DNA of 35,649 nt, taken from the IMG/VR virus record IMGVR_UViG_3300047470_000213, positions 1 to 35,649 of that record, one strand, 5' to 3'. A program made the translations under genes and the position numbers. The notes below the pieces were generated by a model that was not told the origin of the DNA, did no database searches, and saw only the letters and a program-made list of their open reading frames with translations. The stretch is from a virus. The first letter of the stretch is position 1, and every line of letters starts with the position of its first letter. Shown in pieces: positions 54-35,344 of this stretch.

Positions 54-127
54 GCGGGTGTCGTATAATGGCATTACTCCAGCTTCCCAAGCTGATAACG
101 AGGGTTCGATTCCCTTCACCCGCTCCA
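54..127 (+). tRNA. tRNA-Gly (anticodon CCC)
   Basis: The sequence folds as a 74-nt cloverleaf. The acceptor arm GCGGGTG pairs with CACCCGC, the T arm contains GGTTCGATTCC, and CCA is encoded. The seven-base anticodon loop TTCCCAA gives anticodon CCC, so this is a glycine tRNA reading GGG. The first 27 bases are host DNA. The part from 81 on is the attachment core brought by the phage, so integration keeps the gene intact. Its original downstream terminator is now about 35 kb away at 35394-35420. Confidence 0.95.
81..127 (+). repeat. attL core: 47-bp direct repeat within tRNA-Gly
   Basis: These 47 bases, covering the anticodon loop to the CCA end, recur without change at 35298-35344. Bases before and after the two copies differ. 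This is the expected footprint of a tyrosine recombinase that integrates into the 3' half of a tRNA gene, and the integrase lies beside the other copy. Confidence 0.93.
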
Positions 128-274
128 CTATTTACAAGGCCTCCAGCGGTGTCGAGGTAGCGTCAAGCGAGACTGGTGACAGTTTCAGTGACAGTTACTC
201 AGAATTTGCCTCTCACGCTTCTGGCCAGCCCTGCCCTACCCCCTTCCCCGTTTTAGGTTGACCCATGGGAAAAA

Positions 275-547
275 GGTAATTTTGGTAATTGGATTTTCAG
301 ATCCTCCAGAAACCTTTAAAATCAAAGGGTTAGCTCGTATTGTTAAAGGTAATAATAGGGTAATTTTCTAGTAATTAGATTACCTTTAGATAGGGTTAGA
401 TCCTGACCTTACGAAACCCTTTAAAATCAGTCACTTAAGAAAAAATTACCTTTTCAATTACCTTAAATTACCATCTCAGGTAATTGCGCAAAGCCACGTG
501 CTACAAGGCCTGCAGCCCCCCTCCGCAAGCAAATTCCCAAAATTACC
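275..547. repeat. GGTAATT iteron cluster in two imperfect direct repeats (candidate origin)
   Basis: About ten copies of GGTAAT(T) or its complement AATTACC lie in 273 bp. Forward copies start near 275, 284, 348, 359 and 479. Reverse copies start near 379, 444, 456, 466 and 541. A longer order (GGTAATT pair, AGATCCT, CTTTAAAATCA) is found twice: AGATCCT at 299 and 398, CTTTAAAATCA at 314-324 and 419-429. This makes an imperfect direct repeat of about 100-105 bp. The stretch is AT-rich and has no convincing gene. Phage P4 has similar two-orientation iterons at ori and crr, bound by its primase-helicase, and this prophage encodes a zinc-finger/TOPRIM/helicase protein at 30114. Integrase arm sites are the alternative, but the attR side shows no such heptamers. 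Confidence 0.5.
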
Positions 548-625
548 TTTTTCCCAGCCCGCAACCGAAAGGGCCTAAGCTGACCTTTCCAAGGAGTAAA
601 ATTCTGATGAAGGAGGAATGGGAAA

Positions 626-4136: not shown

Positions 4137-4907
4137 TCAGACTGTGATGCCGCGATTAGCGTAGTAGCCTTTCACTGCTTCGTACATGACGTCGATCTCT
4201 ACCTCAGTGAGCACGCGACTCCAGATCGCGGCGAACAAGATCTCCGACGGCAGCGCGCCGGCGACCGAAAGATAGGACGAGCCGATTCGGAAAGGTCCAC
4301 CAAGGTCGGTGGTCTTCCCCGCCGGAATGGGGCTGCTTTGAGCGGCAAGGCCGGCCGTTTTGTTGATGATATTGCCTACCCGGCTTACTTTGCTGATCGT
4401 GCCGAACATGGCCTTCAGCTCAGAAACGGGGCGTGGGGTCGCGATGTAAGGGGCATACAGCACACTTGCCGAGGAGATCCCGTCCCAATGCGACCAAACC
4501 AAAACATCCCGCACCTGGCCATCAACTTCCGGCGATACCTTCCGCACCATGACCGAAGCGCCAATTGTGGTACCGACGCCGCCGGCCCTGGGGCTCCAGT
4601 AGTTCGAGATAATGTGACTATCAGCATCATCCCCTGGGGCTTTGGCGACGACCATAAAGGTCATTTCGTCGGTGTGTGGGACTGCGGTCTGAATGTAGTT
4701 CGCCATCTGGGTGGGAGTCATGCTATTGGCCGTGAATGCAGGCGCCCCTATTACCAGCCCTGGGGGCTTACCTGGTGCCAGGTTGCGTGCAAGGTTCTCA
4801 CTTCCACCAAAGAAATTTAGATACTCCAAACCAGCGGCGACTGGCGGCACATAGTTAATTGCCCTGGCCGCGAAATCGCCATTCTTTACAACGAATCTAA
4901 TTCCCAT
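4137..4907 (-). CDS. Phage host-contact protein, lectin/LamG-like
   Basis: This 256-aa protein is rich in short beta segments and has no membrane span. The tail LTEVEIDVMYEAVKGYYANRG is the helix that commonly ends LamG/concanavalin-like domains of phage fibre and appendage proteins, and the body (residues about 50-240) has the alternating strand pattern of a jelly roll. An AAGGGA ribosome site lies six bases before the ATG, and the start follows the fibre/esterase gene by nine bases, so it is the last gene of the late operon. The likely role is carbohydrate binding at the tip of the fibre or attachment to the neighbouring esterase. Assignment is by fold impression and position. Confidence 0.65.
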   Translation of the reverse strand: MGIRFVVKNGDFAARAINYVPPVAAGLEYLNFFGGSENLARNLAPGKPPGLVIGAPAFTANSMTPTQMANYIQTAVPHTDEMTFMVVAKAPGDDADSHIISNYWSPRAGGVGTTIGASVMVRKVSPEVDGQVRDVLVWSHWDGISSASVLYAPYIATPRPVSELKAMFGTISKVSRVGNIINKTAGLAAQSSPIPAGKTTDLGGPFRIGSSYLSVAGALPSEILFAAIWSRVLTEVEIDVMYEAVKGYYANRGITV

Positions 4908-7092: not shown

Positions 7093-8043
7093 TTAGGCTC
7101 CGGTGATGGGCGTCAGTTGCCCAGAAAGTTGTGCGCCGGTACCGGCATGACCGGCGAAGCTCGCCGCGTTGGTGGGGACTGGGCTGGATCCGTGTTGATG
7201 GCTGGCGATATCGGTGTTCATCTGAATGACCACCTCGATCAAGTCGCACAGCACCTGCAGCACGTTGACCGACTCAGATCCCAGCCAAGTCGTGGGCGCA
7301 GTGCTGCGGCGGGCGCCTTCGATCCGCTCCTGCAGGTGGCCACCCACCGTCAGGTTGAGCTTTTGGCCCACCACCTGGTTGAGGTCGCGGCCGCTGGCCA
7401 GGTGCAGATCATCCAGAGCGGCCAGACTTGCAGCCCCACCCGACAGCAGCTTGAGCGCGCCGATCGCCTCGAGTGTCTTGATGCCCCCGACCGACTCAGT
7501 TGAATGATCGTCCACCGCCACCTTGCTGCTCTGGTGACGCTCGAGGTTGCTCAGGCTCTCCACCTCGCGATCGATCGACTTGTCCAGGATTCGGCCATCG
7601 GTCTGGCGCAGCCAGTTGCCGTCTGCATCGGCGCGCTGCTGGGCGGCGTCGCTGTGCTGCCACACCTGGTCACCTTTCGGCACCTTGGGCAGGCTCAGGC
7701 CGTGCGGCAGGATCGCCTGGATAAACGGCTTGCTCGGCAGGCCGTAGGCAAAGGACACGACCACGCGGGTTCCTTCTTCCGGGAAGGCGAAAAACCCCAT
7801 CTCGTCGCCGCCCATCGGCATCGGCAGCGGCACGCCGGCCAACACTGGCAGCGCCGGATCCGGCTCGTCGTCTTCGCCCAGCAGCTCGAGGTCCACCGCA
7901 AAGCGTGGACGGAAGTCGTCGCAGATCCCGGCGCCGGCCGGCGCATCCGCCACACCGACCACCCGGGCAAAGCGCGGCAGGTGATAACCGCCGGTGAGTT
8001 CGGGAAATTGCCGCTCTACGCTGCGGCGGATTGCGTCTTCCAT
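7093..8043 (-). CDS. V: Baseplate assembly/spike protein (P2 gpV-like)
   Basis: This 316-aa protein has an N-terminal OB-type domain (residues about 15-120, with GDEMGFFAFPEEGTRVVVSFAYGLPSKPFIQAIL, shown here only to mark the typical gpV/VgrG core) followed by a long repetitive beta segment. Near the C-terminus S-H282-Q-H284-G is the HxH apex motif that binds an iron ion at the tip of P2-type membrane-piercing spikes. ATG 8043 overlaps the hub gene by 28 bases; an upstream extension in the same frame is a shadow of that gene. It would sit at the centre of the baseplate under the hub and puncture the outer membrane. At 316 aa it is longer than P2 gpV (about 211), mostly through the beta region. 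Confidence 0.82.
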   Translation of the reverse strand: MEDAIRRSVERQFPELTGGYHLPRFARVVGVADAPAGAGICDDFRPRFAVDLELLGEDDEPDPALPVLAGVPLPMPMGGDEMGFFAFPEEGTRVVVSFAYGLPSKPFIQAILPHGLSLPKVPKGDQVWQHSDAAQQRADADGNWLRQTDGRILDKSIDREVESLSNLERHQSSKVAVDDHSTESVGGIKTLEAIGALKLLSGGAASLAALDDLHLASGRDLNQVVGQKLNLTVGGHLQERIEGARRSTAPTTWLGSESVNVLQVLCDLIEVVIQMNTDIASHQHGSSPVPTNAASFAGHAGTGAQLSGQLTPITGA

Positions 8044-9271: not shown

Positions 9272-10188
9272 AGGCCCACCAATTCCCGAACGAACGACAA
9301 CCCCTTCAGGGAGACGACTAGGAGCACGCCGGCGGACAGACCCCACTCATGACCAGGGGCCTCGCCCTGCAGCAGCTGGTGACGCAACTCGGCGGCATTG
9401 CCCGGACCGATCAGGCGCGCGCGCATGCTGTCGTCGGCGGTACCGCCGACGAACTGTGACTTGAGGTCGGCGAGTTTCTGCGCCTGTGCCTGGGCCTGGC
9501 TGGCTTTACGGGCAGCCAGCTTCGCCAGATCAGCCATCGGTGAACTGTCCGCATAACTTTCCAGTGACGACAGCTGACCGTTCAGGGCTTGCGTGGCGGC
9601 CTTGGTCACCGTGCAACGTTCCAGCGGCAACGCACCCCAGCGCGGCAGTGTGCCGGCGGTGGGCAGTTCCCACTTTTCCGCGTCCAGGGCGAACAGGCTT
9701 TTCGCTCGGCGTTCGGCGCGCTGCAGGTCTGGCATGGGCAACACGGCATTGAACCGGGCCAAGGTCGCCGCGAACTTGTCGTAGCGCGTGCCCAGGAACA
9801 TCACGGCCAAGGCATATTGCGAACCAGCCGGACGGCCGTCATCGCCGGTGTCCTCGAGCTTCTCGCCCAGCTGCTGCAGCAGGTTGGGCGCGGACAGGTA
9901 ACGCTGGTAACCACGGCCCTGCCCTACCCCGCTTTGAAATGGCGTCACCACCAGGCAGGCCGGTACTTCGCCCAGGGCATCGGCCAGGCCCGCCCGGCCA
10001 GCGGCCACGGCGGATTCTGCTGCCGAACCGACCGGACCTGGTGAAGTGGTGGCCAAGTCGGCCAGACCTGCCAGACGTTGCCCGGTGCTGGCCAGCTCGC
10101 TGCTGGCCAGACTCTTGGCCGCCTCGAGGCCGTCAAGCCACTGGGTGGACTGCTCCGGCCAGCGCAGGGTGATTGGTGCCCAAGTCAT
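9268..10188 (-). CDS. Conserved phage structural protein, function unknown
   Basis: This 306-aa protein starts at ATG 10188 (MTWAPITLRWPEQS), overlapping the fibre-assembly stop as ATGA. The middle is helical and alanine/leucine-rich (KASQAQAQAQKLADLKSQFVGG), suggesting a coiled coil. The rest has no recognisable motif. It is embedded in the baseplate cluster and couples translationally to genes on both sides, so a virion or assembly role is likely. I can assign no named family. Confidence 0.65.
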   Translation of the reverse strand: MTWAPITLRWPEQSTQWLDGLEAAKSLASSELASTGQRLAGLADLATTSPGPVGSAAESAVAAGRAGLADALGEVPACLVVTPFQSGVGQGRGYQRYLSAPNLLQQLGEKLEDTGDDGRPAGSQYALAVMFLGTRYDKFAATLARFNAVLPMPDLQRAERRAKSLFALDAEKWELPTAGTLPRWGALPLERCTVTKAATQALNGQLSSLESYADSSPMADLAKLAARKASQAQAQAQKLADLKSQFVGGTADDSMRARLIGPGNAAELRHQLLQGEAPGHEWGLSAGVLLVVSLKGLSFVRELVGL

Positions 10189-16803: not shown

Positions 16804-17255
16804 TTATCCATTCAGAGCATGGGCGATGCCGTTAGCCACGGCGATTTCCATGCGTTTCCAGTGTTCGTCTTCCAGCCACTTGGCCGTGCCCATCACCTCG
16901 GGCGTGGGCTCTTGACCAGGTAGCCAGCGACTGGACAAGGCCAACAGCTGACCTAGGCCGTCCTCGCTCAGGCGCTCAGCGTGCTCGAGGGCTTTTTTAC
17001 GATGATTTCAACGTCCGGCGCGTACTCCTCGAGCAGGGCACCGGCGATCTGCATGGTCATCACCGGGTTGGCCAACAAGGTGCGCAGATCGGCGCGCTGC
17101 TCGGCCACGACGGTGTTGCTCAGCAGGTTGTGGGATGGCGCCACCTTGTTGTTGGCGGTCACGGCGTTGAAGTACTTGGTCACGTCCTGGGGCGTCAGGG
17201 TGAAAGTGAATTCTTGGGCGCCGACTTCCAGGGTGATATCGCGTTTTTCGCTCAT
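16804..17255 (-). CDS. Tail assembly chaperone, -1 frameshift fusion (E+E'-like)
   Basis: A -1 shift on A-AAA-AAG (16998-16992) after lysine 88 leads into an open frame. It reads ALEHAERLSEDGLGQL...MEIAVANGIAHALNG for 62 codons and stops at 16806-16804, six bases before the tape-measure ATG. The fusion is 150 aa; written as a join it is 17255..16992 and 16992..16804. The extension has no plausible start of its own and fills the whole gap between chaperone and tape measure. P2 E/E' and lambda G/GT use the same arrangement, where the long form recruits the tape measure. The pairing CCTCG/CGAGG downstream could form a stimulatory stem. Confidence 0.85.
16968..17255 (-). CDS. E: Tail assembly chaperone, short form (E-like)
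   Basis: This 95-aa protein resembles the putative phage tail assembly chaperone family (DUF2765/TAC type). It has a beta start (MSEKRDITLEVGAQEFTFTLTP), a helical middle and ends EIIVKKPSSTLSA. It lies right before the tape measure, as P2 gpE does, and its ATG overlaps the upstream stop as ATGA. Eight codons before the stop is the A-AAA-AAG slippery heptamer that yields the long form listed separately. The short form is the main product and would coat the tape measure during tail assembly. Confidence 0.85.
   Translation of the reverse strand: MSEKRDITLEVGAQEFTFTLTPQDVTKYFNAVTANNKVAPSHNLLSNTVVAEQRADLRTLLANPVMTMQIAGALLEEYAPDVEIIVKKPSSTLSA
16992..16998 (-). promoter_or_regulatory. Programmed -1 frameshift slippery heptamer A-AAA-AAG
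   Basis: On the coding strand the zero-frame codons are GTA-AAA-AAG-CCC, giving a canonical A-AAA-AAG heptamer as in dnaX. CCTCG starting two bases downstream can pair with CGAGG about 25 bases further to form a stem, with a small inner CGC-TGA-GCG helix. Confidence 0.85.
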
Positions 17256-17509
17256 GTTCTTTTCCGTTGTGGGGGTTGGTTAAAAAGGTGCTGCAGGCGT
17301 TGTTCCAGCCGGTCTTCCAGCTTTTCCATGGCCTTATCGATGTGCTCGGCCCGCACGTATCGCTCGGCGACCTCGATGCGAAACTCCAGGTGCTCACGAC
17401 GGGCCGCGCTGATCTGTTTGAAGAGGTACATCTGAAAACCCACCACACCGGTCAAAACCAGTTCGGTCAGCATCAGCAGTACGCTCACGGCCATGGCTGA
17501 AAGCTCCAT
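17252..17509 (-). CDS. Small membrane protein with coiled coil (holin or spanin candidate)
   Basis: This 85-aa protein has one N-terminal membrane span (about residues 5-27: AMAVSVLLMLTELVLTGVVGF) followed by a charged helical region (about 30-78: EHLEFRIEVAERYVRAEHIDKAMEKLEDRLEQRL), a typical coiled coil. This topology suits an inner-membrane spanin or a small holin. It is the last gene of the lysis-like cluster, starting one base after the DUF1353 stop and overlapping the chaperone gene as ATGA. No other holin is obvious nearby, so it may be the holin. The choice between the two is open. Confidence 0.7.
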   Translation of the reverse strand: MELSAMAVSVLLMLTELVLTGVVGFQMYLFKQISAARREHLEFRIEVAERYVRAEHIDKAMEKLEDRLEQRLQHLFNQPPQRKRT

Positions 17510-28173: not shown

Positions 28174-28274
28174 GCTTACTGCTCCATAAAGTGCATTGCT
28201 GAACCGACGTTGACGGGGCTGGATCTGGCTTAAGTACAGGGGGGCGACGAATGTCGTACACGCTTTGTTACAAG

Positions 28275-28625
28275 TTAATTCCGTTGTCGAGCGGCATCGT
28301 CAGCCATGGCTTTGAGGAATCGACGGATCGCTTCTTGGTCTCCTGCAGTGATGCTTCTGTATTGCCGGACCAGCAGGTCTTCAACGTCGCTGAGAGCGTC
28401 TACCGCCAATGTAGTGCGCAAGCCATTAAGGATATAGGGGACGTCAAAACCGAACTGACTCGCGACTTTACTCAGATAAGACGCAGTCGCGTCGCTCGTT
28501 CCAGCTTCGTAATTGGCCTGCGTCCGTTTGGCTATTCCAAGCGCTTCTGCGATCTCGTTCTGCGTCAAAGAGCAACGCTTACGTTCTTCCTGCAGTCGGG
28601 AGCCTATCTCTTCGGAAAGGTGCAA
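28275..28625 (-). CDS. Prophage repressor, HTH Xre type (C/CI-like)
   Basis: This 116-aa protein has an N-terminal HTH (about residues 6-62: LTQNEIAEALGIAKRTQANYEAGTSDATASYLSKVASQFG) and a short C-terminal helical tail with no peptidase residues. It is thus a P2 C-type repressor that is not cleaved by RecA, or needs an antirepressor. It starts at TTG 28625 in family style (xHLSEEIGSRLQEERKR); no in-frame ATG exists nearby. It faces the rightward early genes across an operator with 10-bp phased TGCA repeats and maintains lysogeny. Confidence 0.85.
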   Translation of the reverse strand: MHLSEEIGSRLQEERKRCSLTQNEIAEALGIAKRTQANYEAGTSDATASYLSKVASQFGFDVPYILNGLRTTLAVDALSDVEDLLVRQYRSITAGDQEAIRRFLKAMADDAARQRN

Positions 28626-28650
28626 AATTATTCATCTCTGATATTTACAA

Positions 28651-28710
28651 ATGCATCGAAGTGCATCATTCTGCATCTCACACCACATGAAAATGCACGG
28701 AACTGCACTA
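28651..28710. promoter_or_regulatory. Early operator with 10-bp phased TGCA repeats
   Basis: TGCA begins at 28652, 28662, 28672, 28694 and 28704, each within a TGCATC or TGCAC unit. Three copies are exactly 10 bp apart, then 22, then 10, so all lie on about the same helix face. The cluster fills the gap between the repressor and the rightward regulator, where repressor and Cox-type proteins should compete. Confidence 0.7.
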
Positions 28711-28922
28711 TGCCCAACTCAAGCATCACCGAGCAAGCCCGACAACAAGCGCGTGAAGCCTTGGATAAGCGCGGTCAATCCGCAAAGGACTTTGCTGAAC
28801 AGCACGATCTGAATCCCAGCACCGTTTACGCGGTGCTGAGTGGCCAGAGCCGTTGTCGCCGTGGGGAGGCACATCGCGCCGCTGTATTGCTTGGTATCAA
28901 AGACGGCGTGATCGAACAGTAA
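28710..28922 (+). CDS. BcepMu gp16-like regulator (early, Cro-like position)
   Basis: This 70-aa protein has the gp16-family pattern: ALDKRGQSAKDFAEQHDLNPSTVYAVLSGQSRCRRGEAHRAAVLLGIKDG, an HTH followed by the RGEAHRAAVLLG signature. ATG 28710 is right after the last TGCA repeat; the frame further upstream is a shadow of the repressor region. It is the first rightward gene and probably competes with the repressor or controls the early operon. Its stop overlaps a possible ATG of the next gene (TAATG). Confidence 0.82.
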   Translation: MPNSSITEQARQQAREALDKRGQSAKDFAEQHDLNPSTVYAVLSGQSRCRRGEAHRAAVLLGIKDGVIEQ

Positions 28923-30113: not shown

Positions 30114-32807
30114 ATGAGAGAAGATCTGCGTCATGACGTTCTGCAGCGCCTTGAATCCGACTACGGCCTGAAACACCGTTCCGGTACCGATTACATGCGC
30201 GGTGGTGAATGCCCTCAGTGCCACAAGCGCGAGCTCTACTCCCGCCACGACAAGCCCTGGCTGGTGATCTGCGGCCGATCGGAGAAGTGCGGCCACACCA
30301 TGCACGTCAAAGAAATCTATGACGACCTCTTCGAAGACTGGAGCAAGCGTGCGCCGGCAACTGACAGCGCCCCAACCGCCACAGCCCGGGCTTACCTTGA
30401 GTTTGGCCGCGGCTTCGACATCGGCTTGATCGCAGGCTGGTTCACGCAGGAAACGTACTACTCAGCCCAACACAACGCCGGCACTGCGACTGTGCGATTC
30501 GCCCTGGAGAAAGGCGGCTACTGGGAACGACTGATCGATAAGCCGGCCCGCTTCGGCAAGATGAAAGCGCGCTTCGCACCAGGTGATAGCTATCGCGGCG
30601 TGTGGTGGTGTCCACCGTGCGTCGACGTGCTCGAGGCGAAGGAAATCTGGATCGTCGAAGGCATCTTCGATGCCATCGCCCTGGTGCACCACAACATCGC
30701 CGCCGTGTCGGCGATGTCCTCCAACGCCTTCCCGGCTGACTCCCTACAGACTCTTGTGGCAGCTCGCCCGGGCAATCTGCCCAAACTGGTCTGGGCGCTG
30801 GATAACGAGCCTGGTGCACATGCCTACACGAAGCGCTGGGTTCGCATGGCCCGGGAATTGGGGTTTACCTGTGAAGCCGCGCAGATTCCCCAGCGAGACG
30901 GCCGCAAAGTCGACTGGAACGATTTACACCAGCGCTGGCAGTTCCTGGACGAAGGCGAGAAGCGTGATGCCCAGCACGACAAGGACATCACCATTGCTCG
31001 TCATCATGGCGCCCTGCTGATCGCAGAGAGCGCCACCGAGAAGGCGCTGGTGATGTTCGACTGGAAGCGTCGCAGTGAATTCCACCTGGAGTTCGGCAAC
31101 CGCCTGTATTGGTTCAAGCTCGATCTGGAGAAGTACAACAAGGCGATTCAGGAGCTCGAGGACAGCGATCACCACGACGACCAGCTGCTGAACAACAAAC
31201 AGATGCGGGCCAAGGCCATGCAGCAGTGCGGCGCACTGCAACGCATTGCTACCTGCAACCCCAAGGCCCTGTACTACCAAGAGAACAAGCTCACCGACGA
31301 GTCCTGGTACTACTTCCGGATCACGTTCGCCCACGATGCGGCGCCCATCAAAAACACCTTCACCAGCTCGCAGATCGCCTCGTCTGCAGAGTTCAAGAAA
31401 CGCCTGCTCGGCATTGCCCCGGGCGGGATGTTCACCGGTACCACCCAGCAGCTGGACGCGTTCATTGAGGAACAAACCGACGCCCTCAAGACGGTGCAGA
31501 CCATCGACTTCACCGGCTACACCCGTGAGCACGGCGCGTACGTCTATGGCGACGTGGCTGTGCGCGACGGCAAGGTGTTCAAGTTGAACGAAGAAGACTT
31601 CTTCGACATGGACCGACTGAGCATCAAGACCCTTAGCCAATCGGTCACCCTGAACCTTAATACCGACCTGCAGAAGTTCGACACCGAGTGGTTAGACATC
31701 ATCTGGGAATGCTTCGGCGCGAAAGGCTTGGTGGCGCTCGCCTTCTGGTTCGGCTCGTTGTTCGCCGAACAGATCCGCCAACACCAGAAAAGCTATCCCT
31801 TCATGGAAATCATCGGTGAGCCAGGCGCCGGTAAGTCCACGTTGATTGAATTCTTGTGGAAGCTGTGCGGGCGTATCGATTACGAGGGGTTCGACCCAAC
31901 CAAAGGCACCCCCGTTGCTCGAGCACGTAACTTCGCCCAGGTCGGCAATCTGCCGGTGGTCCTGATCGAGTCGGAGCGGGAAAAGACCGATGGCAGCCAG
32001 ACCAAGCAATACGACTGGGACGAACTGAAAACCGCCTACAACGGCCGAAGCGTCCGCTCGACCGGTGTGAAGAACAACGGCAATGACACCCGCGAGCCTC
32101 CTTTCCGTGGTGCGGTGGTCATTGGCCAGAACCACGCAGTGAATGCGTCAGAACCCATTCTGCAGCGCCTGGTGCACATCGCCATGACGAAGGACGGGCA
32201 GACGCCGGCGACTAAATTGTTGGTGGAAAAACTCGAGCGTATGCCGGTCGACCGCGTCAGCGGGTTCCTGGTCAAGTCCACCATGATGGAAAGCCAGGTG
32301 ATGGAGACCGTCCGCGAAAAGGGGCCCAAGTACGAACAGCAGCTGCTGGCCCTGCCCGAGATCCGCACCGTCCGGATCGCGAAAAATCATGCCCAGCTGC
32401 ACGCCCTGGTCGACGCCCTGATGCACGTGGTCCCGCTGAAAAAACACCAAGTGGAAGCGGCTCACACGGAGCTTCGGAACATGGCGAAGGATCGGCAGTT
32501 GGCTATCAATGCTGATCATCCGATCGTCGTTGAGTTCTGGGAGCTGTACGAGTACCTGAACAGCGCTGCCGGCGGGCTTAACCACTCCCGCAATGACGGC
32601 CTGATCGCAGTGAACCTCAACGACTTCGCCAAAGAGGCCGCAGAGAAACGCCAGAAAGTCCCGGATCTGACCGAGCTCAAGCGCCACCTGAAAACAAGCA
32701 AATGCCCAAAGTTCGTTGAGACCAATAGAAATGTCTGCTCAGCATGGGATACCGATGCGGCTGACAAACCGAAAACCGTACGGTGCTGGATTTTTCAAGC
32801 TTCCTGA
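30114..32807 (+). CDS. Replication protein: zinc finger, TOPRIM primase and helicase/ATPase
   Basis: This 897-aa protein carries a C4-type zinc finger (C33, C36, C53, C59), a TOPRIM domain with E182 in VEGIFDA and D230 in WALDNE, a middle region of unknown type, and an ATPase domain with Walker A GEPGAGKST (568-576) and IESERE as likely Walker B (about 615-620). This is the plan of primase-helicase proteins such as P4 alpha and related phage replicases, although domain order and details differ. It replaces the rolling-circle gpA of P2. It should recognise an origin, prime and unwind; the GGTAATT cluster at 275-547 is a possible target. An 18-codon frame and the AlpA gene follow in the same direction. 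Confidence 0.88.
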   Translation: MREDLRHDVLQRLESDYGLKHRSGTDYMRGGECPQCHKRELYSRHDKPWLVICGRSEKCGHTMHVKEIYDDLFEDWSKRAPATDSAPTATARAYLEFGRGFDIGLIAGWFTQETYYSAQHNAGTATVRFALEKGGYWERLIDKPARFGKMKARFAPGDSYRGVWWCPPCVDVLEAKEIWIVEGIFDAIALVHHNIAAVSAMSSNAFPADSLQTLVAARPGNLPKLVWALDNEPGAHAYTKRWVRMARELGFTCEAAQIPQRDGRKVDWNDLHQRWQFLDEGEKRDAQHDKDITIARHHGALLIAESATEKALVMFDWKRRSEFHLEFGNRLYWFKLDLEKYNKAIQELEDSDHHDDQLLNNKQMRAKAMQQCGALQRIATCNPKALYYQENKLTDESWYYFRITFAHDAAPIKNTFTSSQIASSAEFKKRLLGIAPGGMFTGTTQQLDAFIEEQTDALKTVQTIDFTGYTREHGAYVYGDVAVRDGKVFKLNEEDFFDMDRLSIKTLSQSVTLNLNTDLQKFDTEWLDIIWECFGAKGLVALAFWFGSLFAEQIRQHQKSYPFMEIIGEPGAGKSTLIEFLWKLCGRIDYEGFDPTKGTPVARARNFAQVGNLPVVLIESEREKTDGSQTKQYDWDELKTAYNGRSVRSTGVKNNGNDTREPPFRGAVVIGQNHAVNASEPILQRLVHIAMTKDGQTPATKLLVEKLERMPVDRVSGFLVKSTMMESQVMETVREKGPKYEQQLLALPEIRTVRIAKNHAQLHALVDALMHVVPLKKHQVEAAHTELRNMAKDRQLAINADHPIVVEFWELYEYLNSAAGGLNHSRNDGLIAVNLNDFAKEAAEKRQKVPDLTELKRHLKTSKCPKFVETNRNVCSAWDTDAADKPKTVRCWIFQAS

Positions 32808-32832: not shown

Positions 32833-32889
32833 ATGCACATCCAAGTCATCATAGGCGTCTTCAGTAAGTCGGGGGGGCAAGTGCAGTGA
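32833..32889 (+). CDS. Possible 18-codon leader peptide coupled to the AlpA-like gene
   Basis: ATG 32833 has an AGGA seven bases upstream (AGGAAAGCAAAAATG) and codes MHIQVIIGVFSKSGGQVQ. The stop TGA overlaps the GTG start of the AlpA-like gene (GTGA), an arrangement typical of translational coupling. It may be a leader that tunes AlpA synthesis. The short length makes it tentative. Confidence 0.4.
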   Translation: MHIQVIIGVFSKSGGQVQ

Positions 32890-33089
32890 GACAGTTGGAC
32901 CGTTTCATGAAGGAACGAGAGGTGATTGAGGTCACTACTCTGTCGCACGCCACTTTATGGAGGGAAGTAAAAAAGGGAGCATTTCCCAAGCCTGTACGGA
33001 TTTCTCCTGGACGGGTCGGCTGGCGAGAATCAGCCATAGCAATATGGCAACAAGATCCTGAGAAATGGAAAGCCCCAGGAGCCGCGTAG
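32886..33089 (+). CDS. AlpA/Cox-like excisionase and regulator
   Basis: This 67-aa protein has the AlpA pattern at 13-40: a winged HTH with LSHATLWREVKKGAFPKPVRI and a C-terminal GRVGWRESAI. Members act as excisionase or as activator of integrase genes. It starts at GTG 32886 after a G-rich ribosome site (a run of seven G), or at ATG 32907, which would remove seven residues. It is the last gene of the rightward early region, and integrase lies 850 bases away on the other strand. Excision directionality is the likely role. Confidence 0.85.
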   Translation: MRQLDRFMKEREVIEVTTLSHATLWREVKKGAFPKPVRISPGRVGWRESAIAIWQQDPEKWKAPGAA

Positions 33090-35297: not shown

Positions 35298-35344
35298 AGC
35301 TTCCCAAGCTGATAACGAGGGTTCGATTCCCTTCACCCGCTCCA
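35298..35344 (+). repeat. attR core: second 47-bp copy of the tRNA-Gly end
   Basis: Identical to 81-127, with different flanks (ATCCA before, ACCGAA after). The part left of it is phage DNA, including integrase and its upstream region. The part right of it is host DNA. Confidence 0.93.

What the first reader, a model, noticed from the sequence alone, without database searches (positions are those of the whole stretch)
275..547. GGTAATT iteron cluster near attL, a P4-like candidate origin
Ten heptamers in both orientations in 273 bp, arranged in an imperfect direct repeat of about 100-105 bp (shared AGATCCT and CTTTAAAATCA), are far beyond chance. P4 alpha primase-helicase uses two-orientation iterons at ori and crr, the latter as long direct repeats. 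This prophage has a comparable replicase. No copies were seen on the attR arm, which argues against integrase arm sites.
Basis: partly seen in the sequence, partly recalled or inferred. Interest (0 to 1): 0.7.

Follow-up and report, generated by a model that had tools for sequence, protein, structure and literature searches.

The report
Phage replication origin beside integration site
A 300-base block of short repeated DNA words next to where this bacterial virus inserts itself is most likely the place where the virus starts copying its DNA, and across related viruses the repeated word changes together with the copying enzyme.

Summary
The cluster is real. All 8 GGTAATT of the window lie in 275-547, and it holds 10 GGTAAT. 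It is the core of a ~320-bp A+T-rich array (247-568) with a conserved layout. Homologous arrays occur in phiCTX, Dobby, Smp131 and many Pseudomonas prophages, beside unrelated integrases and terminases. In 298 Pseudomonas genomes the array and the full-length replicase family (phrog_1139) co-occur; 53 of 65 replicases have an array 17-37 kb upstream, all on the same strand. Relatives keep the scaffold but change the repeated word (GTAATT, GYRATA, GTGATA, GTAAC, CTGACAG). The word class follows the replicase (54 of 59 nearest neighbours) better than eight other phage proteins (56-72%). The replicase model resembles SCCmec Cch (Z 22.4) and SaPIBov1 Rep (Z 20.1), initiator helicases; SaPI Rep reads ori iterons with its C-terminal domain. 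Best reading: an iteron origin, or an essential part of one, read by the phage's own primase-helicase. It works like P4 ori/crr, but the protein is not P4-alpha by Pfam. The window is itself an exception: its replicase belongs to the GYRATA/GTGATA clade, its array to the GTAATT class. Nothing here shows replication experimentally.

The parts
54..127 (+). tRNA-Gly (anticodon ccc); its 3' end is the attL core
   Evidence: ARAGORN
81..127 (.). attL core, 47 bp, identical to 35298-35344
35298..35344 (.). attR core, 47 bp
247..568 (+). iteron array: proposed replication origin (or essential part of it)
   Evidence: profile hit 247-568; conservation
267..283 (+). left copy of the perfect 17-bp inverted repeat bounding the array
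539..555 (-). right copy of the perfect 17-bp inverted repeat
275..281 (+). iteron GGTAATT
284..290 (+). iteron GGTAATT, 9 bp after the previous one (the first two P4 crr iterons, 4314 and 4323, are also 9 bp apart)
348..354 (+). iteron variant GGTAATA
359..365 (+). iteron GGTAATT
370..376 (+). iteron variant AGTAATT
378..384 (-). iteron variant GGTAATC
444..450 (-). iteron GGTAATT
456..462 (-). iteron GGTAATT
466..472 (-). iteron GGTAATT
479..485 (+). iteron GGTAATT
532..538 (-). iteron variant GGGAATT
541..547 (-). iteron GGTAATT
310..324 (+). spacer element, first copy of the ~105-bp direct repeat
415..429 (+). spacer element, second copy
30114..32807 (+). replicase, 897 aa: Toprim (DnaG-like) primase part ~82-305 and Cch/SaPIBov1-Rep-like initiator helicase ~322-897; phrog_1139
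32286..32804 (+). C-terminal domain of the replicase (residues 725-897), proposed iteron reader
   Evidence: model pLDDT 90.4; fold matches; function inferred
32886..33089 (+). AlpA-type regulator (neighbour, not part of the origin)

Best explanation
The block 247-568 is an iteron-type replication origin of a P2-like temperate phage, or an essential cis part of one (like P4 crr). In the excised circle it lies beside attP. The phage's own primase-helicase (30114-32807) would bind the iterons through its C-terminal domain, assemble on both sides of the A+T-rich middle as the two-orientation layout suggests, melt the DNA, unwind it with its helicase part and prime with its DnaG-like part. Shown: the array, its conservation, its company with the replicase, the tracking of the repeated word with the replicase, the predicted fold. 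Inferred: binding, melting and that replication starts here.
For: (a) Array conserved (about 73% DNA identity over 325 bp) in Citexvirus phages and phiCTX, with the iterons among the invariant columns. (b) Integrases of window, phiCTX and Dobby do not align, yet the array is kept; the terminase large subunit is only 45% identical to Dobby's but 71% to phi3's, and phi3 lacks this array. (c) Of 14 viral records with an array found by DNA pattern, 10 encode the replicase family; the 4 without are contigs of 6.2-10.8 kb. Of 8 bacterial genomes found by pattern, 6 have it full length. (d) 298 Pseudomonas genomes: both 52, array only 28, replicase only 6, neither 212; 53 of 65 replicases have an array 17.1-37.1 kb upstream on the same contig, 53 of 53 on the same strand. 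(e) Word class agrees between nearest neighbours by replicase in 54 of 59, against 25/43 integrase, 31/52 terminase, 29/52 portal, 40/59 ogr, and 29/50, 36/57, 35/55, 41/57 for four small proteins. (f) The cluster finder recovers P4 crr and P4 ori, flags nothing in P2 (whose annotated origin is a nick site), and flags CGGAACA beside the phi3 replicase. (g) Replicase model: SCCmec Cch Z 22.4 (450 aligned), SaPIBov1 Rep Z 20.1 (434), above DnaG at 14.2. PMC7581432 (passages read) says SaPI Rep reads ori iterons with its C-terminal domain and that Cch is related to SaPIBov1 Rep.
Against: The window breaks the covariation: its replicase is 94% identical to G001's (52 differences, only one of them in the last 97 residues, A818T), whose array is GTAATA/GCGATA, while the window has GTAATT. 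28 of 80 array-bearing genomes lack a full-length replicase; those fetched look in part like remnants. G350 has the replicase on a long contig but no array was seen in the 20 kb fetched. SaPI/PICI and phi3 origins lie right behind rep; here the array is ~3 kb away across attP. Cumulative G-C skew fell almost steadily along the prophage and gave no origin signal. The shuffles do not correct for common descent.
Confidence: 0.8

Rival explanations
1. The heptamers are arm-type sites of the integrase or sites of the excisionase/AlpA, used in integration and excision.
For: Lies 120-440 bp from the att core, multiple short repeats in both orientations; in the excised circle it is on one arm of attP.
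Against: Conserved array beside three mutually unalignable integrases; the same integrase families occur with different words and different words with the same integrase (25 of 43 agreement); phages sharing the integrase but not the replicase (PG1, pAN, LPPA56) have no such array; in Smp131 the array is ~2.2 kb from attP, with annotated genes between (attP 30,738-30,783 from PMC3931495). Nothing on the other arm.
Confidence: 0.05
2. The array is a packaging element (terminase-binding region of cos).
For: In phiCTX, Dobby, Sirocco, D14A and Smp131 a phiCTX-type cos lies ~160-260 bp beyond the array.
Against: No phiCTX-type cos (12-mer, one mismatch) near it in the window; word class follows terminase poorly (31 of 52); P2 has a cos and a related terminase but no such array.
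Confidence: 0.05
3. A crr-like or handcuffing control element: the replicase binds here to control copy number or to help a start site elsewhere, but replication does not start here.
For: P4 crr, the closest match in place, size and layout, is a separate cis-required region while its ori lies ~4.5 kb away. The window has no second GGTAATT cluster, but a start site with another word cannot be excluded.
Against: A single array of this kind in most records scanned; PICI/SaPI origins are single iteron loci (PMC6092414, passages).
Confidence: 0.1
4. Operator array or centromere: a phage regulator or ParB-like protein binds it (immunity, partition, or silencing).
For: Palindromic layout and many sites would suit a DNA-binding regulator; lies upstream of cargo genes.
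Against: Word class follows the HTH protein 28251-28922 (29 of 50) and other small proteins less well than the replicase; neighbouring cargo differs from phage to phage.
Confidence: 0.05

Closest known systems
P4 crr and ori with the alpha protein
   Same: crr starts ~195 bp from the attP core, is 300 bp long, holds 10 annotated type-1 iterons in both orientations within two 120-bp direct repeats, the first two 9 bp apart; Toprim-primase plus helicase replicase.
   Different: Other iteron word; one array instead of ori plus crr; alpha has D5_N and Pox_D5 domains, the window protein none; BLASTP E 0.05 only.
SaPIBov1 Rep-ori, SCCmec Cch and PICI replicons
   Same: Predicted fold of residues 322-897 (Z 20.1 and 22.4); the UFJF_PfPro relative has a DUF927 Pfam match, the family named for Cch in PMC7581432; PICI origins have two iteron sets around an A+T-rich stretch (PMC6092414).
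   Different: Primase fused on; origin not directly behind the gene but beside attP; full P2-like phage, not a satellite; no significant sequence match to Cch or Rep.
phiCTX / Citexvirus attP-cos region
   Same: Homologous array in D13409 at about 1912-2234, between annotated attP core and cosR, not annotated there.
   Different: 10 exact GGTAATT in the cluster of Dobby, Sirocco and D14A (8 in phiCTX and in the window); different integrase, cos and terminase.
P2 replication (gpA nick site)
   Same: Same virus family (Peduoviridae) and virion genes.
   Different: P2 starts at a nick site inside gene A (annotation); the cluster finder flags nothing in P2.

Membership tests
P4-alpha type replicon | replicase with Zn_Ribbon_Prim, Toprim, D5_N, Pox_D5 (as P4 alpha) | tested here: not met
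   Window protein: Toprim_2 only at E<=0.001; P4 alpha gives all four
P4-alpha type replicon | two-orientation iterons in a ~300-bp region beside attP (crr) | tested here: met
P4-alpha type replicon | second iteron cluster (ori) elsewhere | tested here: not met
   All 8 GGTAATT in one place; the cluster finder gives no other A+T-rich cluster in the window
SaPIBov1 Rep / SCCmec Cch (DUF927) initiator helicases | helicase plus C-terminal domain fold of Cch/Rep | tested here: met
   Z 22.4 over 450 and Z 20.1 over 434 residues, model pLDDT 81.8
SaPIBov1 Rep / SCCmec Cch (DUF927) initiator helicases | sequence-level DUF927 match | tested here: inconclusive
   Window protein shows none; UFJF_PfPro relative E 1.6e-7
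SaPIBov1 Rep / SCCmec Cch (DUF927) initiator helicases | origin directly downstream of the rep gene | tested here: not met
   Array is across attP from the replicase; phi3 does have its repeats right behind the gene
Iteron origin | multiple copies of one short word, conserved in register, with an A+T-rich part | tested here: met
Iteron origin | initiator binds the iterons; replication starts there | not testable with these tools
   Needs binding and replication assays
Integrase arm-type sites | follows the integrase family | tested here: not met
cos/terminase-binding element | follows cos and terminase | tested here: not met
   Near cos in five phages, but no such cos near it in the window and weak tracking

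The most novel reading that the evidence does not exclude
A modular phage origin: one conserved scaffold in which the iteron word has been exchanged wholesale (GTAATT, GYRATA, GTGATA, GTAAC, CTGACAG, GTAAGTGAG) together with replicase specificity, so that many P2-like prophages in one genus are mutually compatible replicons. Some 8.5-10-kb att-flanked elements that keep only integrase, AlpA, cargo and the array (L364, L380) may be satellites that use a helper phage's replicase in trans.
Probability: 0.25. Interest if true: 0.75.

Novelty: new variant of a known kind. Interest (0 to 1): 0.6.

Why it matters
It gives a large group of P2-like prophages (the full-length replicase is in 58 of the 298 Pseudomonas genomes searched) a concrete predicted origin and a predicted initiator of the SaPI/SCCmec helicase type, unlike P2's nick-site start. 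The natural set of word classes with matched replicases, and the window as a natural mismatch, makes initiator-iteron specificity directly testable.

Tried and rejected
Plain counting of GGTAATT in replicase relatives misled: 42 of 42 records had no cluster until the left ends were read and a changed word was seen. For Dobby-like records (replicase 85-99% to Dobby's) absence was uninformative: 17 of 23 searched have no GGTAATT at all and the other 6 have one; in the seven whose left ends were fetched a portal gene lies within 1.9 kb of the record end and no tRNA was found, so the noncoding att region is probably cut off. Of 79 left-end loci examined 49 gave a profile hit, one of them (L314, E 0.0023) weak; of the 25 that include a tRNA gene, 24 gave one and the 25th, L346, shows GTAAGTGAG repeats by eye. 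The exact pattern TGTTGACCCAT was in 0 of 40 records, so it is no general marker. The TcpK winged-helix matches of the C-terminal domain (Z 5.9) are below the level to be trusted alone. No sequence match of the replicase profile to Cch or SaPI Rep in PDB. G-C skew: no signal. phiCTX's whole genome was not in the collection; that phiCTX has this replicase is inferred from L232, L248 and L260, which carry phiCTX integrase at 99% and Dobby-type replicase at 96-99%. In the 59-record test records without a recognisable array had been left out beforehand, and for phages held whole the class was scored on the densest 320 bp anywhere, so the label of Halomonas phage 4908 is doubtful. Of the 12 replicases without a paired array, 5 were examined: TCTGACA clusters in 2, profile hits in 2, nothing in 1; 7 were not examined. 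Literature: searches returned no paper that I recognised as describing this array (search listings, plus passages of PMC3931495, PMC6092414, PMC2647930 and PMC7581432); subscription papers on phiCTX attP-cos are not held, so it may have been noted there.

Full report
What is there. The window is a 35,649-base virus record: a prophage in a tRNA-Gly(ccc) gene (54-127) with 47-bp att cores at 81-127 and 35298-35344. All 8 GGTAATT lie in 275-547; there are 10 GGTAAT and 12 sites within one mismatch, on both strands. Local shuffles give 0.11 on average, maximum 2 in 2000, though some other 7-mer reached 8 or more copies in 6 of 2000. G+C is 0.37 against 0.57. The profile of the array also matches its own reverse complement, so the layout is roughly palindromic.

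Who shares it. blastn finds the region in 7 phage records: Dobby (two records), Sirocco, D14A, OQ658368 and two short phiCTX records. In phiCTX D13409 it lies between the annotated attP core (1737-1766) and cosR (2393-2413) and is not annotated. In the alignment the iterons and a few spacer blocks make up most of the invariant columns. Two DNA patterns found 14 viral-contig loci between them (10 and 14 hits, overlapping) and one pattern found 8 Pseudomonas contigs. Where a tRNA was found in these loci it was tRNA-Gly(ccc), tRNA-Thr(tgt) or tRNA-Leu(caa).

Not the integrase. The integrases of window, phiCTX and Dobby give no significant BLASTP alignment, yet the array is kept. L102 joins a Dobby-type replicase with a window-type integrase and has the array. 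PG1, pAN and LPPA56 share an integrase family with the window or with Dobby but have other replicases (PriCT_2 in PG1, Prim-Pol in LPPA56; pAN annotated PriCT-2) and no such array; the cluster finder instead flags CCCAACA right behind their own primase genes.

The apparent refutation and its resolution. 42 of 42 records with replicases 67-94% identical to the window's have no GGTAATT cluster. Reading their left ends showed the same scaffold with other words: GTAATA/GCGATA, GTGATA, GTAACC, aligned site by site with the window. A profile built from eight arrays finds the array in most left ends, in Smp131 (E 1.7e-14) and in Halomonas phage 4908 (E 8e-19). UFJF_PfPro keeps outer and inner spacer blocks but has CTGACAG; its close relatives have TCTGACA clusters in the same place. 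One more, L346, shows GTAAGTGAG by eye. Of 79 left-end loci 49 gave a hit (one weak); of the 25 with a tRNA gene 24 did.

Company with the replicase. A sequence-only model of 133 columns was run on 298 Pseudomonas genomes: 80 have a hit at E<=0.01. Full-length phrog_1139 (over 1100 bits) is present at 65 places in 58 of the same genomes. Both 52, array only 28, replicase only 6, neither 212. 53 of 65 replicases have an array 17.1-37.1 kb upstream (median 28.7 kb) on the same contig, all 53 on the same strand. The genomes are not independent, so the Fisher value (1e-30) is only descriptive. Of 12 replicases without a partner, 5 were looked at and 4 do have an array (two with TCTGACA, two by weaker profile hits); one, G350, shows none; 7 were not looked at.

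Which protein does the word follow? For 59 records with a class label and a replicase, the nearest neighbour by replicase has the same class in 54 (shuffled mean 16.6-16.7, maximum 33-34). The same test gives 25 of 43 for integrase, 31 of 52 for terminase, 29 of 52 for portal, 40 of 59 for ogr, and 29/50, 36/57, 35/55, 41/57 for four small early proteins. Because these phages are mosaics, the contrast means more than the shuffle. The five replicase exceptions include the window itself: its replicase is 94% identical to G001's, with one difference in the last 97 residues, but its array is of the GTAATT class. Its first 717 bases are 93% identical to L144, a GTAATT-class prophage at the same tRNA, so the left end was probably acquired by recombination. 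Either the replicase reads GTAATT and GTAATA alike, or this pair is mismatched.

The protein. PHROGs places the replicase in phrog_1139, DNA primase. Pfam sees only Toprim_2 in it at E<=0.001, whereas P4 alpha shows Zn_Ribbon_Prim, Toprim_3, D5_N, DUF5906 and Pox_D5. The model (897 aa, pLDDT 81.8) matches SCCmec Cch (Z 22.4, 450 residues) and SaPIBov1 Rep (Z 20.1, 434 residues) over 322-897 and DnaG primases over 86-304 (Z about 14) (Foldseek E 5.6e-13 and 4e-11). The C-terminal 173 residues alone (pLDDT 90.4) match TcpK, SaPIBov1 Rep and Cch weakly (Z 5.9, 5.7, 4.8). From passages read: SaPI Rep reads ori iterons with its C-terminal domain, and Cch, with DUF927, is related to SaPIBov1 Rep (PMC7581432); PICI origins have two iteron sets around an A+T-rich stretch (PMC6092414).

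Controls. The cluster finder flags both known P4 elements (GTGAACA x7 at 4314 in crr, x6 at 9311 in ori) and nothing in P2. It also flags GC-rich words in some genomes, so its hits alone are weak evidence. phi3, with a 71% identical terminase but a 33% identical replicase (tblastn), has CGGAACA repeats right behind its replicase and no GGTAATT.

Against. Array-only genomes exist (28 of 298 at E<=0.01). Those fetched include decayed prophages with fragments of integrase, replicase or terminase (L370, L374, L379, L381) and an att-flanked small element, L380 (10.0 kb), with integrase, AlpA and array but no replicase; a like one, L364 (8.5 kb), came from another genome. In Smp131 the array is near cos, about 2.2 kb from attP (attP position from PMC3931495, passages; array), so nearness to attP is not a fixed feature. 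G-C skew is uninformative. No replication or binding data exist here.

Conclusion. The new element is the conserved scaffold with exchanged words that follow the replicase.

Noticed in passing
L364:10482-19089 and L380:7257-17343: Att-flanked 8.5- and 10.0-kb elements at tRNA-Gly with window-type integrase (67-68%), AlpA (65-70%), cargo (NACHT NTPase and M78 peptidase in L364) and the array, without replicase, terminase or capsid genes found; remnants or satellites.
   Followed up: partly
L370:11121-11456 and 16956-17282; L382:4077-4401 and 7713-8030: Two arrays 5.8 and 3.6 kb apart in one region, suggesting tandem integration or stacked remnants.
   Followed up: partly
L176:39719, L177:28883, L180:37145, L173:10449: CCCAACA clusters; in the first three directly behind primase-helicase genes of other families: probably origins of another replicase type.
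   Followed up: no
L012:7390-7730: phi3: repeated CCGGAACA/CTGGAACA right behind its distantly related replicase, a likely origin.
   Followed up: no
window:1-717: 93% identical to L144 (GTAATT class) while the replicase belongs to the GYRATA/GTGATA clade: the prophage looks recombinant.
   Followed up: partly
L040:12769-13422, L264:12771-13556, L266:12764-13555: A second, shorter stretch right behind the replicase that resembles part of it at 32-35% identity (for L040, for L264 and L266); also seen as separate hits in bacterial genomes.
   Followed up: no
window:1922-2320: A 132-aa frame whose relatives lie near the array in many records even where the cargo differs; function unknown.
   Followed up: no
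L003:1912-2234: The phiCTX attP-cos record carries the array without annotation.
   Followed up: yes
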